From assembly GCF_029910235.1 (NCBI RefSeq), contig NZ_CP112874.1, positions 1 through 64,000 on the forward strand: a DNA stretch of 64,000 bases, read 5' to 3'. A model generated the notes under the pieces. The model was given only the letters and a program-made list of their open reading frames with translations. It was not told the DNA's origin and made no database searches. The stretch is from Pseudanabaena galeata CCNP1313. GTDB lineage: Bacteria > Cyanobacteriota > Cyanobacteriia > Pseudanabaenales > Pseudanabaenaceae. Positions 1,977 through 7,682 of the stretch are shown piece by piece; the first letter of the stretch is position 1, and every line of letters starts with the position of its first letter. The position numbers and the translations under genes are program-made.

Positions 1977-3354
1977 GGGTGCGACCTTGACATAATACGA
2001 AGATTGTAGAACAATGAAAGAATAACGAAGGAGATCAAGAAAGAAAATGTCGGCAAAGTTAATAAGTGTAGAAGGCACAAAAGTAAAAATCGAACTTACA
2101 ATTGAATTGAGTGAATCGATGTTAGATAGTGAAGGTAATATTCAAGAAGGATTGAACGAAGCAGGGTGTATAGCAGCTAAGGAAGCAATGAAACATTTAG
2201 ATACAGATGGTTCAGCAATAAAGCTAGGAGAGAAAACATGGCGAACAAAGGGAGAGGAAGAGAAAGCATATCAAACTCCTTACGGCGAGGTAGTAGTAGC
2301 AAGGCATGTATATCAAAGTGCGGGTGGGGGAAAAACTTATTGCCCCATGGAAAGAAACGCACGAATAGTTGTGACATCAACACCAAAGTTCGCCAAACAA
2401 ATATCATCGAAAATGGCTAATGGGGTAGCAAGAGAAGTACAACGAGATTTGCGTGATAATCATGGGCGTGAGGTAGCAGTATCCTATATTCAGAGATTGA
2501 GCGAAGCGGTTGGCAGCATTGTGCAAGCAAAAGAAGAAAGTGACAATTATGAGCCGCCAGAGATAGATGTCAAGATTGAATCGGTTGGTATAGGGTTAGA
2601 TGGAACCTGTATGCTGATGTGTGAAGATGGCTGGCGAGAAGCTATGGTAGGGACGATATCATTATATGATAGTGAAGGAGAACGTCAGCACACGATCTAT
2701 CTGGGAGCAACACCAGAATATGGTAGGAAGCGATTTTTAGAACGATTAGAGCGAGAAATCAGACAAACAAAAGATCGATATCCTAATGCAACCTATGTAG
2801 GAATTGCTGATGGAGCCGAATCCAACTGGAAATTCTTAAATGAACACACAGAAGAGCAGATCCTCGATTTTTATCATGCTTCAGGTTATTTGGGAATACT
2901 AGCCGAAGTTCTACATCCTAAGCAAATTCCCGAACAAAAAGAATGGCTTAAAAATAGTTGTCATCAACTCAAACATGAAATCGGAAGTGCCGAAAAATTC
3001 TACAACCAGATGGTACTGGCGATGACTGAAAATAAGCTAACCGAAACCATGAGGGAAAAGCTCCAAGCTTCGATTACTTACTTTAACAATCATTTGTGGC
3101 AAATGGACTATGCTCAATTCCAACAGAAAACCTATCCGATTGGCTCTGGTGTGACCGAAGCTGCTTGCAAGACTTTAATAAAGCAACGATTATGTTGCTC
3201 TGGGATGCGTTGGAAGGACAAGGGGGCGAGCATAATTTTGAGTTTAAGAGCTTTAGTTTTAACTTCTACTCGTTGGGAGCAATTCTGGGACAATCTCAAT
3301 CAGTATGGGTTTCCTGCTGCTGTCTAATAATTGTATTGTATTGAGGTCGCACCC
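1977..3354 (+). mobile_element. Complete ISKra4-family insertion sequence with 8-bp target duplication
   Basis: A 1378-bp element bounded by 11-bp perfect inverted repeats, GGGTGCGACCT at 1977-1987 and AGGTCGCACCC at 3344-3354. Direct copies of ATAGAGAT flank it at 1969-1976 and 3355-3362. It encodes one transposase. The intact ends, open reading frame and exact target duplication point to a recent insertion that may still be active. Confidence 0.9.
2047..3327 (+). CDS. ISKra4 family transposase
   Basis: A 426-residue transposase of the ISKra4 type. The N-terminal third is helical and charged. A DDE-type core follows: the GIGLDGTCM segment (about 180-190) carries the first acidic residue, the YVGIADGAESNWKFL segment (about 250-264) the second, and a C-terminal helical segment with TYPIGSGVTEAACKTLIKQR holds the conserved GSG-E motif of this family. 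An ATG start with GGAG-like spacing (AAGGAGATCAAG at about 2028-2039) is well supported. It fills almost all of the element between the inverted repeats. No frameshift is visible. Confidence 0.9.
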   Translation: MSAKLISVEGTKVKIELTIELSESMLDSEGNIQEGLNEAGCIAAKEAMKHLDTDGSAIKLGEKTWRTKGEEEKAYQTPYGEVVVARHVYQSAGGGKTYCPMERNARIVVTSTPKFAKQISSKMANGVAREVQRDLRDNHGREVAVSYIQRLSEAVGSIVQAKEESDNYEPPEIDVKIESVGIGLDGTCMLMCEDGWREAMVGTISLYDSEGERQHTIYLGATPEYGRKRFLERLEREIRQTKDRYPNATYVGIADGAESNWKFLNEHTEEQILDFYHASGYLGILAEVLHPKQIPEQKEWLKNSCHQLKHEIGSAEKFYNQMVLAMTENKLTETMREKLQASITYFNNHLWQMDYAQFQQKTYPIGSGVTEAACKTLIKQRLCCSGMRWKDKGASIILSLRALVLTSTRWEQFWDNLNQYGFPAAV

Positions 3355-3485
3355 ATAGAGATAAACAAAATCAGGACACTTGTGTTCCTATCAAGAAGAC
3401 CCAACGTAAACAAAACTATCTGAACTGTGTGTGGTATCAAGGATTGTCAAAAAGACCTATGAGGAGTCTTGTTCATTGGTTTACC

Positions 3486-3570
3486 AACTAACGGTCTAGT
3501 TGAGCCGCGCAGTCACACTTTGGCTTTTAGAAATAACCTTGATACGGTCGGCTCCAACGCAGTGTTAGCC
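3486..3570 (-). other. attC-like recombination site behind the NADAR gene
   Basis: Read on the minus strand, an 85-bp imperfect palindrome begins 19 bases after the NADAR stop codon. It has the attC architecture: R'' GGCTAAC (3564-3570), L'' GTTGGAGCC (3550-3558), a variable middle, L' GGCTCAAC (3499-3506), R' GTTAGTT (3486-3492). L'' and L' pair perfectly except for one extra G in L'', matching the extrahelical base that marks the recombinogenic strand of integron attC sites. R'' and R' each differ from the consensus (RYYYAAC, GTTRRRY) at one position. Its orientation relative to the gene is that of an integron cassette. No integrase gene lies in the window. Confidence 0.6.
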
Positions 3571-3589
3571 ATCCGACTGCAAGAGCTAA

Positions 3590-4567
3590 CTAATTGATTA
3601 AAGTTAATTGAGATTCTGCAATGTACCGAACTGGTTTAGAAAGTTTTCTAACTTTACCAAGCTCAACCGCTCGATCTAACCACTTACGCATTATCTTCAA
3701 ATCAGTGTTCTCGAAAATCTTAACTAACTCTTTATCGGTGCGTTCGGTTTTCAAGCTACCTATTATGTATGGCATCATAATTTGAGAAGCATCATATTTT
3801 TGGTGTTCGGATTCAATAGGCTCAGCACTCACATGGCTATTTATGCTATTTTTTCCGTTAAAATCAGACTCAAGCATAGGAGCATCTGGCAAAACGACTT
3901 CTGAATCAGGTTGGTTATTTACCTTGTTAAAGTCCAGTAAATCCCTGTAATTGTCTAGATGATATTCACTATTTGCTGAAACTGAGCTAATTTCTTGTCC
4001 ATACAACAAAAAATTTTGAATTGGAAGAGGCTTTACAATTGTTTCGGAAGTAATTTCTCCAGTCTTTATTTGTTCTCTTACTTGCATTAACAAACGTCCA
4101 AGCACATTAGCACCAGTAAGAATTTCTTCGTCCTCTGGTTTAGCACCCCAAAAATCATCTTTCCTTGAATCTTCAACAATTGGCAAATCTCCTGTCTCTA
4201 GTAGAAGCTCACTAAATTTCTCCCAATTTTGAACAAGTTTTACCTGCAAACACCAACGCATTACTTTTGTTCGGACTATATCCCAGTCAACACGAGAATT
4301 ATCTCGGTAAGGCTTGCTTTTCATTTTTGCTGTCATGGGACTCCGTTCAGCAATGATTAGTCTTTGGACTTCAGGTAGATGAGGGAAACGACAAGCTTGA
4401 TAGAGTGCCTCAGAGGTCAAAATCTTGACTCCGTTAACATTTAACAGGTATCCACCTGCCATGTTAGACAACCCACCGAATTTTTCAGCAGTCTTACGAA
4501 AAGTAATGCATTCTAGCCTATTGTATGTTCTTGATTCAGGAAGCTTTGCTACTGCTAGCATCTTCAA
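3590..4567 (-). CDS. NADAR N-glycosidase with C-terminal winged-helix domain
   Basis: Residues 18-168 form a NADAR (YbiA/DUF1768) domain. Landmarks are FGGLSNMA (30-37), SEALYQACRF (52-61), the DDFWGAKP motif (137-144) and NVLGRLLMQVR (154-164). NADAR proteins cleave N-glycosidic bonds of ribosylated small molecules, and some family members remove ADP-ribose from guanine. A low-complexity linker (170-258) leads to a predicted winged helix (262-316, with DKELVKIFE and VRKLSKPVRY) like the C-terminal domain of DprA, probably for DNA binding or oligomerisation. The ATG overlaps the stop of the upstream PRTase-like gene by 4 bp (ATGA), so the two are translationally coupled. An attC-like site follows the stop. 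The actual substrate is unknown. Confidence 0.85.
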   Translation of the reverse strand: MKMLAVAKLPESRTYNRLECITFRKTAEKFGGLSNMAGGYLLNVNGVKILTSEALYQACRFPHLPEVQRLIIAERSPMTAKMKSKPYRDNSRVDWDIVRTKVMRWCLQVKLVQNWEKFSELLLETGDLPIVEDSRKDDFWGAKPEDEEILTGANVLGRLLMQVREQIKTGEITSETIVKPLPIQNFLLYGQEISSVSANSEYHLDNYRDLLDFNKVNNQPDSEVVLPDAPMLESDFNGKNSINSHVSAEPIESEHQKYDASQIMMPYIIGSLKTERTDKELVKIFENTDLKIMRKWLDRAVELGKVRKLSKPVRYIAESQLTLIN

Positions 4568-5640
4568 AACTCCTCCAATTCAGGAATTGGCGTGATGTTA
4601 ACTGTCCGAGGAAACAGGGGATACCAAGCACTTAATGGGTAAGCTTTACTGGGATCACCCCACCATAATGCCAGTGGGCAGTTATTTGCGATATTACGAT
4701 ATGTTATCAGAATTGCCCCAAATCCTAAAGACTCCAAATAGTCATATCCTAATGGTCGCATACTACTGTTCGGGCTTCTAGGTAGTGAAACAATGTATGC
4801 GCCAGCCTTCAAGAATGCGTACTCAATCACTTCACGGGCAGCAGGTGAAGAAAAAATACTGTCCTGAGTTGGCATATTATTAGGACGAAATAAAGGCGGG
4901 AAAGATTGATTAGACTTTTGAAGTCGCTGATTATTTACTGCATGAATATATTGATCGACAAATTGATCACCAGAGATTTCATGAGACCAGAAGCAATCAA
5001 ATCTTGACGGAATCCGTCGTGAGTTGTGAAATTCATACCATTTCCAAAAATGTACTGAAATATTTCTTAGATGTGCTTGCTCCTCAATTTTTCTTTTTGA
5101 ATACTCAAACCCTTCTGTATGATGTGCAAAAAATATTATGTGTAAAGTTGTTCCATGTATGGCTTTTGGCAACCAAGAAATAATGTCACGTCGCACCCTA
5201 TTGCCAGAATATAAGCAATCATCAAAATAAATATAAGCAATTGGACTTCTACCACAGTCTTTAATCTCAATTCCATATAGTCTTTGAAGAAGCGAATCGC
5301 AAATGCTCAATAAATCGTTTTGACTACTACCTTTTGTTTGGATTTTCAGAAATTTTGTATTTGGCAATTTTTTGGCAGGCTCTGCCCCAAGTAGTCTTTC
5401 GGAAATTAACGCTCTATGAATAAAGACTTGAGCCTTTTCATGGGAAATATAGTAGGTTTTCAGAATACGATCTATCTGCTCAAGGATCACCATTTGAGCA
5501 TTGTCGTCACAACCAAACTTGTCAAACTGAGTTACCCATCTATTCACATGACTTGGATTAATAGTGGGGATCTCGCCCTGTCGATAATCAGCGATTGTTG
5601 TTGTGATTGATTGGAGTAAAGCTTCACGCTGGTTAGTCAT
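4564..5640 (-). CDS. Phosphoribosyltransferase-like protein (PRTase-CE type)
   Basis: This 358-residue protein has a helical N-terminal region (1-90) and a Rossmann-like core with IAYIYFDDCLYSGNR (134-148). That is the type I phosphoribosyltransferase PRPP-loop pattern: hydrophobic strand, Asp140-Asp141, Ser145-Gly146. The C-terminal region ends in the motif YRNIANNCPLALWWGDP (314-330), which I recall from uncharacterised proteins in prokaryotic conflict islands. It is the first gene of a two-gene unit with the NADAR gene, overlapping by 4 bp. A PRTase would make or break a base-ribose-5-phosphate bond with PRPP, and NADAR breaks N-glycosidic bonds, so the pair could act on the same kind of nucleotide adduct. 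That link is inference. The family name PRTase-CE is recalled, not searched. Confidence 0.7.
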   Translation of the reverse strand: MTNQREALLQSITTTIADYRQGEIPTINPSHVNRWVTQFDKFGCDDNAQMVILEQIDRILKTYYISHEKAQVFIHRALISERLLGAEPAKKLPNTKFLKIQTKGSSQNDLLSICDSLLQRLYGIEIKDCGRSPIAYIYFDDCLYSGNRVRRDIISWLPKAIHGTTLHIIFFAHHTEGFEYSKRKIEEQAHLRNISVHFWKWYEFHNSRRIPSRFDCFWSHEISGDQFVDQYIHAVNNQRLQKSNQSFPPLFRPNNMPTQDSIFSSPAAREVIEYAFLKAGAYIVSLPRSPNSSMRPLGYDYLESLGFGAILITYRNIANNCPLALWWGDPSKAYPLSAWYPLFPRTVNITPIPELEEF

Positions 5641-5716
5641 ACTGGCATAAGACCGTAGCTAATTATTCTCTGTTGCCAGCCACTTTACAATACCGTTGCC
5701 ACAAGTAACTAAAGGA

Positions 5717-5900
5717 GGGCTAACTATGTATTAGCCAGAATTTTTCTGTCTAATATGACTATATGGTGATTAGGCTGAAAGTCAAGTTTCTGGCTAATCA
5801 CCCTAATAGGGATGTTATACAGAAAAATTCTGGCTAATTACTCTATATAGTGCATTATACAGAAAAATTCTGGCTAATTATCTAAAGAGCGTGTTAGCCC
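5717..5900. repeat. 184-bp nested inverted repeat upstream of the PRTase-NADAR operon
   Basis: The outer arms are GGGCTAAC (5717-5724) and GTTAGCCC (5893-5900). Inside them, TTAGCCAGAATTTTTCTGT at 5731-5749 faces its complement at 5815-5877, where a 26-bp unit occurs twice in direct orientation (5815-5840 and 5855-5880). A second inner pair is GGTGATTAG (5765-5773) against CTAATCACC (5794-5802). It resembles a MITE or a decayed attC site. The rest of the 362-bp gap 5641-6002 shows nothing more; a promoter for the operon must lie within it. Confidence 0.75.
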
Positions 5901-6002
5901 GACGATATCATGTATTATTTAGGTTAGTTACTTCATAATTACATTCGTTATTCATCTCAATCGTGGCGGTAAGGGCGTGATTAGTCCGCTTGAGCGACTT
6001 CT

Positions 6003-7682
6003 CTAAAAAACTGGCAACTGCAAACAAGAAGGATATTCCGCACCATGAAAAATTTGCTGTGTTGCCTCTACAAAGTCACAGACTGTTGCCTCTGACGGCA
6101 ACTTTTGTGTATTTGAATGTCGCTCGATCGCAGGAAAAGCCGAACTTGTGATCGCAACACCAATCCGATGCCCTTGAGCAAAATTCTGACAGGTGGGACG
6201 CAACTTAATCCGATATTCATTCACCACATCAGATTCAATCCATTCAGGCTCAGTCCATGATTTACGGAACTTAGCGCGTAAAACACCCATCGACACTAGC
6301 ATTTGCTTACCATCGGGATAAATATCTAAGAGCTTAATCACCCAATCCGTATCAGGAGCAGTAGTAGCCGCATAAAGAATAAATTCGGGAATACCTGCGA
6401 TCGCTATCTCTTCATCCAGTTCTGCACTCTCATAAACCAATGCATCCCAACGATGATGCACATGACGCTGATCATAGAATCCATAGGGTGTAGCAGGATT
6501 GGGATTACGCGGATCGTAGACGTAGATATCGGGTAATTGATGATTGATGATTGGGGGGTGGTCGCTTAGTTGTTTTTGGGAAGAGAGATAGAATACTTTT
6601 GTGCGAGTATCTTTTGGGAATTCTGGTAAATCTAGCCAGTGATTTTTGCCCATAAAAAACATTTGAACGGGAGCGCGATCGCAGATTCCATTCTCAATTC
6701 CTTTTAACCAAAAATCAAACCAATCCACTTGCAATTGATCAATTTTAGAAACAGCCGCTTCACCAAAATCAATCTCACCGACTTTCGGTAGCCAAGGCAT
6801 ATGCTGCCAAGGTGCAACTACTAAATGCTGCGGTTTCGTAGTTGCGGATTTCGCTTGGTGATAGGTGTTAATCGTCGCCTCAATAAAAATATCTGCCCAT
6901 CCCGCAATGTGTAAAGCAGGTAAATCATAGCGATCAAAATAACTGAGAGGATTTAGCTGTTGCCAATATTGATCATCAGCTTGCTGATTCCCAATCCAAT
7001 CAAAAAAGAATTGACCAAAATCTCCAAAAGACTCATTCTTAAATAATTCTATTTCACTTAATGGCACTGTCTCTAACCATTTAGAGAACTGCTTTTGGGC
7101 TGCAAACAGGTTGGTTGCTTGTGGTTCTTTTTTTAAATACCATGCTCGATTTTGAGCTAGCTGTAAAGCCCAGCCTAAGTCAAAGTCCAGACAAAGCGCA
7201 CCACCAAAATAAAACCAACCGTGATACAAGTCCGCCGTTGCCATAGTCGGACAGATTGTAACTAGTCCTTCAGGCTGTTGCACAGCAGCTTGGAATTGGG
7301 TTACCCCCTGATAGGAAAATCCATACATTCCTACCTTGCCACTACTGCCTTCTAGTTCCTTTGCACACCATTCCACTGTGTCAAATCCATCATCATATTC
7401 GCTAACAAATGGATAGAATTCACCCTCAGAAGTGCCACAACCACGCACATCTTGGATCACGACAATATAGCCTTGGCTGGCATACCAACTAGGATGAGCA
7501 TAGGTACAACTAGAAGCGATCGCTCGACCATAGGGCAAGCGCATCAATAGCACGGGCAAAGGCGTGTCAACATTTTTGGGTCGATAAATGTCAGCCGTCA
7601 AGTTAATGCGATCACGCATGGGGATCTTGACTTGACGCTGAACATTAACTTGAGAATGGAATGAAGTTAATTTAGGAGGCAT
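6003..7682 (-). CDS. CocE/NonD family alpha/beta hydrolase (X-Pro dipeptidyl-peptidase S15-like)
   Basis: 559 residues, the usual length for the CocE/NonD family. The N-terminal S15-type alpha/beta hydrolase domain has LMRLPYGR, the VVIQDVRGCGTSEGEF oxyanion region (74-89), and the nucleophile elbow GFSYQG with Ser123. The acid is probably the Asp of LHIAGWADIF and the base the His of VAPWQHMPW. The last 200 residues form the jelly-roll C-terminal domain common to cocaine esterase and X-Pro dipeptidyl peptidases (DTDWVIKLLDIYPDG). Substrates in cyanobacteria are unknown; esters or amides are likely. There is no signal peptide, so it should be cytoplasmic. A 61-residue gene ends 9 bp upstream in the same direction, which suggests co-transcription. 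Confidence 0.9.
   Translation of the reverse strand: MPPKLTSFHSQVNVQRQVKIPMRDRINLTADIYRPKNVDTPLPVLLMRLPYGRAIASSCTYAHPSWYASQGYIVVIQDVRGCGTSEGEFYPFVSEYDDGFDTVEWCAKELEGSSGKVGMYGFSYQGVTQFQAAVQQPEGLVTICPTMATADLYHGWFYFGGALCLDFDLGWALQLAQNRAWYLKKEPQATNLFAAQKQFSKWLETVPLSEIELFKNESFGDFGQFFFDWIGNQQADDQYWQQLNPLSYFDRYDLPALHIAGWADIFIEATINTYHQAKSATTKPQHLVVAPWQHMPWLPKVGEIDFGEAAVSKIDQLQVDWFDFWLKGIENGICDRAPVQMFFMGKNHWLDLPEFPKDTRTKVFYLSSQKQLSDHPPIINHQLPDIYVYDPRNPNPATPYGFYDQRHVHHRWDALVYESAELDEEIAIAGIPEFILYAATTAPDTDWVIKLLDIYPDGKQMLVSMGVLRAKFRKSWTEPEWIESDVVNEYRIKLRPTCQNFAQGHRIGVAITSSAFPAIERHSNTQKLPSEATVCDFVEATQQIFHGAEYPSCLQLPVF

What the first reader, a model, noticed from the sequence alone, without database searches (positions are those of the whole stretch)
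3486..5900. Two-gene PRTase-NADAR operon ends at an attC-like site, like an integron cassette
The minus-strand operon is followed, 19 bp after its stop, by an 85-bp site with the R''-L''-L'-R' layout of an integron attC, including perfect L pairing broken by one extrahelical G. Upstream, at 5717-5900, outer arms with the same GGCTAAC box in the same orientation could mark the other cassette edge. No integrase is in the window, so this would be an orphan attC. A two-gene conflict-type operon carried as a gene cassette in a cyanobacterium would be notable.
Basis: partly seen in the sequence, partly recalled or inferred. Interest (0 to 1): 0.8.

Follow-up and report, generated by a model that had tools for sequence, protein, structure and literature searches.

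The report
Anti-phage operon as integron gene cassette
In a Pseudanabaena-type cyanobacterium, a two-gene system of a known anti-phage family sits as a precise gene cassette beside dnaA in an integron whose own integrase has been almost completely deleted; relatives carry the same cassette elsewhere, or a different cassette in the same slot.

Summary
The 85-bp site (3486-3570, minus strand) is a genuine attC. A covariance model built only from attCs of relatives scores it 77.3 bits (E 3.5e-19), the best hit in the genome. The cassette is 3492-5723 (2232 bp). A congener (G023) carries the same two genes, 94.5% identical in DNA, inside an attC array near an intact integrase, and the homology ends exactly at the two crossover cores. 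A near congener (G005) has the same chromosomal slot with a different cassette.

It is not an orphan attC. The 5724-5945 stretch is the attI site, with a conserved promoter facing the cassette. It matches 13 other attIs, in all of which similarity stops at G^TT. At 5956-6006 the last 16 codons of intI remain (LNRGGKGVISPLERLL*); about 0.9 kb is deleted, with the same junction in G005. The genome holds two more attI platforms and no integron integrase.

The operon passes the NCBIfam cut-offs for both DS-32 anti-phage proteins. Chromosomal integrons, cassette-borne defence and DS-32 are each known, so this is a new member of a known kind. The unusual part is an attI that seems to have changed cassettes after losing its integrase.

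The parts
3492..5723 (-). integron gene cassette (2232 bp), crossover to crossover
   Evidence: 94.5% nt identity to G023 over 2238 bp, ending at the CTAAC cores on both sides; identity resumes exactly at G^TTAGCCC; coordinates checked
3486..3570 (-). attC site of the cassette (R'' 3564-3570, L'' 3550-3558, L' 3499-3506, R' 3486-3492)
   Evidence: R1 77.3 bits, E 3.5e-19; structural scan; box coordinates
4564..5640 (-). PRTase-CE gene, 358 aa; DS-32 protein 1
   Evidence: PF24390 171.6 bits; NF053875 384 bits, cut-off 250
3590..4567 (-). NADAR gene, up to 325 aa; DS-32 protein 2, overlapping or abutting the PRTase stop
   Evidence: PF08719 91 bits; NF053876 290.6 bits, cut-off 240
5724..5945 (-). 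attI site and intI leader region; insertion point G^TT at 5724/5723
   Evidence: alignment of 14 attI regions, similarity ends at G^TT; same region lies next to intact intI in relatives
5758..5785 (-). predicted cassette promoter Pc, TTGACT-N16-TATAGT, reading into the cassette
   Evidence: 10 of 12 consensus positions; hexamers largely conserved across the 14 attIs; no expression data
5956..6006 (+). intI remnant: last 16 codons, LNRGGKGVISPLERLL*; about 0.9 kb of intI deleted upstream
   Evidence: tblastn of G023 IntI; junction shared with G005; coordinates
3354..3491 (.). distal flank of the array, shared with G005 up to the core
   Evidence: 3446-3494 is 100% identical to G005

Best explanation
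Window 3492-5723 is a two-gene integron cassette encoding a DS-32-type anti-phage system (PRTase-CE and NADAR). It is docked at the attI of a chromosomal integron beside dnaA whose intI is a 16-codon remnant. Shown by sequence: attC, attI, exact crossover boundaries, the same cassette in another array, different cassettes in the same slot of G005, and the intI deletion. Inferred: the cassette is transcribed from the conserved promoter in attI; it entered as a circle whose attC folds as a single strand and is recombined by an IntI; and because G000 and G005 share the intI deletion but differ in cassettes, at least one exchange was done in trans by the IntI of another integron (for example the 3.03-Mb one, intact in G005) before this genome lost that gene too. 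The likely role of the cargo is phage defence: PRTase-CE as a PRPP-using effector or modifier, and NADAR as a YbiA/NADAR-type glycosidase acting on nucleotide or ADP-ribose substrates. That step is inference from family names and motifs.
For: attC. Precise cassette edges against G023. Same slot, different cassettes in G005: and two attCs there by the model. attI: with intact intI beside it in relatives. intI remnant and shared deletion. No integron integrase in this genome over the cut-off (best 32 bits against 265), while 125 of 390 genomes of the class have one. Mobility: cassette dS against G023 is 0.15 (0.11-0.19), against 1.16 for the neighbouring hydrolase gene between the same genomes. 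attC hits at E 1e-6 or better occur in 25 of 26 genomes of the genus. DS-32 assignment. PRPP-loop-like YxYxDDCLxSG invariant in 8 homologues. In Myxacorys, from another order, the same operon also ends in an attC (38.6 bits).
Against: The isolated attC does not fold better than shuffles and its core is slightly off consensus. The trans step rests on G005 alone; an ancestral array holding both cassettes, followed by losses, or import of the whole locus by homologous recombination, is not excluded. dS is a rough clock and differs inside the cassette (PRTase 0.22, NADAR 0.08). Promoter and defence function are untested in this organism. Six of ten cyanobacterial genomes with DS-32 have no R1-type attC next to it, so the system is not tied to integrons.
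Confidence: 0.93

Rival explanations
1. Chance inverted repeat near an ordinary chromosomal operon; no integron is involved.
For: Only one attC-like site in the 64 kb; fold energy of the isolated site is not better than shuffles; G028 has the operon without an attC.
Against: Model E 3.5e-19; cassette edges exact in G023; attI identity ending at G^TT in 14 loci; intI remnant.
Confidence: 0.01
2. Frozen relic: the cassette was captured in cis before intI was deleted, and all later differences between G000 and G005 are losses from a longer ancestral array or changes by homologous recombination. This shares the cassette reading and differs only on the trans step.
For: G005 carries two cassettes at the slot, so an ancestral multi-cassette array is conceivable; the dnaA locus may have moved between lineages (G012 lacks the platform).
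Against: The attCs of the different cassettes look too unlike for easy homologous deletion, while the junctions are exact; cassette dS against G023 (0.15) is lower than G000-G005 dS (0.29) at the same locus, although the direction of transfer is not known.
Confidence: 0.4
3. The operon was moved by a transposon or MITE (the ISKra4-family IS beside it, or the repeat at 5720-5945) and not by an integrase.
For: An ISKra4-family IS lies at about 1977-3353, and 5720-5945 is repeated in the genome.
Against: The IS has its own 9-bp target duplication and does not reach the cassette; the repeat is attI, found beside intact intI genes in relatives.
Confidence: 0.01

Closest known systems
Sedentary chromosomal integron with gene cassettes (attC/attI/IntI)
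   Same: attC layout, attI with inward promoter, intI divergent from the cassettes, closely similar attCs across the genus, cassettes exchanged between lineages
   Different: intI at this locus is reduced to 16 codons and no integron integrase remains in the genome; only one cassette at the site
CALIN (cluster of attC sites lacking an integron integrase)
   Same: attC without a functional integrase nearby
   Different: attI, the predicted promoter and an intI stub are still present, and there is only one attC here; the cluster at C1:1661083-1662617 fits CALIN better
DS-32 anti-phage system (NCBIfam NF053875 and NF053876)
   Same: both proteins exceed the equivalog cut-offs and are adjacent
   Different: carried as an integron cassette here, in G023/G025 and with an attC in Myxacorys; activity not tested in cyanobacteria in what was read
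Phage-defence cassettes of chromosomal and mobile integrons (Darracq et al. and Kieffer et al., cited in PMC13092281; the papers themselves were not read)
   Same: defence genes as integron cassettes
   Different: cyanobacterial host and a two-gene PRTase/NADAR system; whether DS-32 was listed there could not be checked

Membership tests
Integron gene cassette | attC with R''-L''-L'-R' layout, paired L boxes and an extrahelical base | tested here: met
Integron gene cassette | attC directly downstream of the cassette gene, same orientation | tested here: met
   NADAR stop 3590, attC from 3570, both on the minus strand
Integron gene cassette | unit boundaries at the G^TT crossover on both sides, seen as gain, loss or exchange in relatives | tested here: met
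   G023 and G005 comparisons
Integron gene cassette | recombination of the folded bottom strand by IntI, circular intermediate | not testable with these tools
   needs an assay; fold energy of this site alone is inconclusive
Complete integron | intI gene coding for an integron integrase | tested here: not met
   only the last 16 codons remain; best genome-wide score 32 bits against a cut-off of 265
Complete integron | attI site next to intI | tested here: met
   14-locus alignment with identity ending at G^TT
Complete integron | cassette promoter Pc | tested here: inconclusive
   conserved TTGACT-N16-TATAGT; not shown to be active
Sedentary chromosomal integron | attCs closely alike within the host taxon | tested here: met
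   25 of 26 genomes of the genus hit by R1; G023 has 61 hits
CALIN | two or more clustered attCs without intI | tested here: not met
   single attC at this locus
DS-32 anti-phage system | both proteins above the NCBIfam equivalog cut-offs, adjacent | tested here: met
   384 against 250 and 290.6 against 240 bits
DS-32 anti-phage system | protection against phage | not testable with these tools
   no assay

The most novel reading that the evidence does not exclude
attI platforms can outlive their integrase and stay in use: one genome scatters several attI-promoter docking sites that lack their own intI and are served in trans by a single IntI elsewhere, so that defence cassettes are swapped at integrase-free sites such as the one beside dnaA.
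Probability: 0.4. Interest if true: 0.6.

Novelty: new member of a known kind. Interest (0 to 1): 0.45.

Why it matters
It places a two-gene DS-32 system in the cassette pool of cyanobacterial integrons, with direct evidence of recent movement between lineages. It also shows integron decay in one genome: three attI platforms, no integrase left. The pair G000/G005, with a shared integrase deletion but different cassettes, makes it testable whether attI sites that have lost their integrase keep exchanging cassettes in trans.

Tried and rejected
Rfam finds nothing at the site. A pattern search of the own genome for TAACGGTCTAGTTGAGC with 3 mismatches is at background (20 hits against 18 control hits); only the hits with 0 to 2 mismatches matter. 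The 5720-5945 repeat was first taken for a MITE and rejected once it proved to sit upstream of intact intI genes in relatives. A second attC at 5717-5900 was rejected because the L' to R' spacing does not fit and the box is part of attI. Fold energy of the isolated attC gave no support. The published attC model of IntegronFinder is not available here; a genus model was built in its place. Structure prediction was not run, because family models already name both proteins. The original description of DS-32 was not found in the library, and the integron-defence paper looked up is not held.

Full report
Setting. The window is bases 1-64000 of contig C1 of a 5.84-Mb, six-contig cyanobacterial genome that begins at dnaA. 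The genus is Pseudanabaena: the contig of G025 is JADBWH010000103.1, Pseudanabaena sp..

The attC. Read on the minus strand, the site 3570-3486 is GGCTAAC-ACTGC-GTTGGAGCC...GGCTCAAC-TAGACC-GTTAGTT. It has 5- and 6-nt spacers and one extrahelical base in L''. A strict scan finds only this site in 64 kb; shuffles give 0.1 on average. I aligned 26 attCs from relatives, leaving out this genome and the G023 copy of the same cassette, and built a covariance model. Their helices covary: 40 cells changed on both sides against 17 in shuffles, and slid structures fall from 93% to under 40% paired. The model finds the window site at 77.3 bits, E 3.5e-19. It is the best hit in the genome; seven hits in the genome reach E 1e-6.

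The cassette edges. In G023 the same two genes lie in an attC array near an intact integron integrase. DNA identity is 94.5% over 2238 bp and runs from the CTAAC core at 3488-3492 to the CTAAC core at 5720-5724. At the start, the window reads ATACATAG^TTAGCCC and G023 reads TAGACCG^TTAGCCC. The cassette is therefore 3492-5723. Its dS to G023 is 0.15, against 1.16 for the neighbouring hydrolase gene between the same genomes, so it moved between lineages.

The same slot in a near relative. G005 has the same dnaA-hydrolase locus. The left flank is identical for 49 bp up to the core, and homology resumes at attI, but between them lies a different insert: a glycosyltransferase cassette and a short cassette with no listed gene of its own, each with an attC. 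In several more distant relatives the flanking genes are separated by only about 55-160 bp, without a platform.

attI and the lost integrase. Window 5720-5945 occurs twice more in this genome and beside intact intI genes in relatives. In an alignment of 14 such regions the similarity stops at CTAATACATAG^TT, and each continues into a different cassette. A conserved TTGACT-N16-TATAGT reads towards the cassette. At 5956-6006 the frame LNRGGKGVISPLERLL* is the end of IntI. About 0.9 kb is missing, and G005 has the same junction, with the start codon fused to the last codons. The integron at 3.03 Mb keeps the start of intI, shares its deletion with G012, and is syntenic with the intact intI of G005 and G010. 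The one at 1.90 Mb has attI, one cassette with attC, and no visible intI. No integron integrase above the cut-off exists in the genome.

Mechanism. Established by sequence: cassette, attC, attI, intI loss. Inferred: IntI-mediated insertion; expression from the attI promoter; and trans action. G000 and G005 share the intI deletion but differ in cassettes, so something changed after the integrase was lost. An IntI from another integron is the simplest agent, and G005 still has one. Loss from a longer ancestral array, or exchange of the locus by recombination, remains possible. I put the trans step at about 0.5.

Cargo. Both proteins exceed NCBIfam equivalog cut-offs for DS-32 anti-phage proteins. 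The PRTase keeps a PRPP-loop-like DDCLxSG in all eight homologues aligned, and the NADAR core is highly conserved; its nearest solved structure is YbiA. DS-32 is counted among defence systems in two recent papers (PMC12735699, PMC12447246). In Myxacorys almedinensis (Leptolyngbyales) the operon also ends in an attC. Six of ten cyanobacterial genomes with DS-32 show no such attC nearby, so DS-32 is an occasional integron passenger.

Known or new. attCs of Cyanobacteria have been modelled before (PMC8352920), and integron-borne defence is cited as published (PMC13092281). The finding is a well-supported new member. The novel element is the integrase-free attI with differing cassettes.

Noticed in passing
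window 1977-3353: ISKra4-family insertion sequence (transposase 2047-3327) between dnaA and the cassette, with a 9-bp target duplication CATAGAGAT; absent in G005.
   Followed up: partly
L154 7402-8819 (C1:1895401-1896818): Second attI platform of this genome: attI, one cassette (343-aa ORF) with attC, no intI visible.
   Followed up: partly
L155 6521-9486 (C1:3028520-3031485): Third attI platform: attI followed by only the first codons of intI, attC further out; syntenic with intact intI in G005 and G010; the deletion is shared with G012.
   Followed up: yes
L006 593-2126 (C1:1661083-1662617): Cluster of three attCs without intI, one truncated to 36 bp; one cassette encodes a protein that looks like XisI (name from memory, not tested).
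   Followed up: partly
L067-L069, L165 (G023): Large chromosomal integron with dozens of attCs (61 model hits in the genome), including many near-identical repeats and a 60-bp attC resembling the aadA type.
   Followed up: no
L112 8459-8600: Short cassette of about 140 bp with attC and no listed ORF of its own at the attI of G005.
   Followed up: no
L112 10120-10337: 218-bp insert with inverted ends (CCACATTCCGCTC...GAGCGGAATGTGG) in the distal flank of G005, absent in the window; looks like a MITE.
   Followed up: no
G000 C4:57641-57729: attC model hit (41.8 bits) on one of the smaller contigs, possibly a plasmid, of this genome.
   Followed up: no
L019 1500-1523 (C1:4477827): Half an attC (R' and L' side only) directly after a gene that looks like a VOC/glyoxalase family gene.
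   Followed up: no
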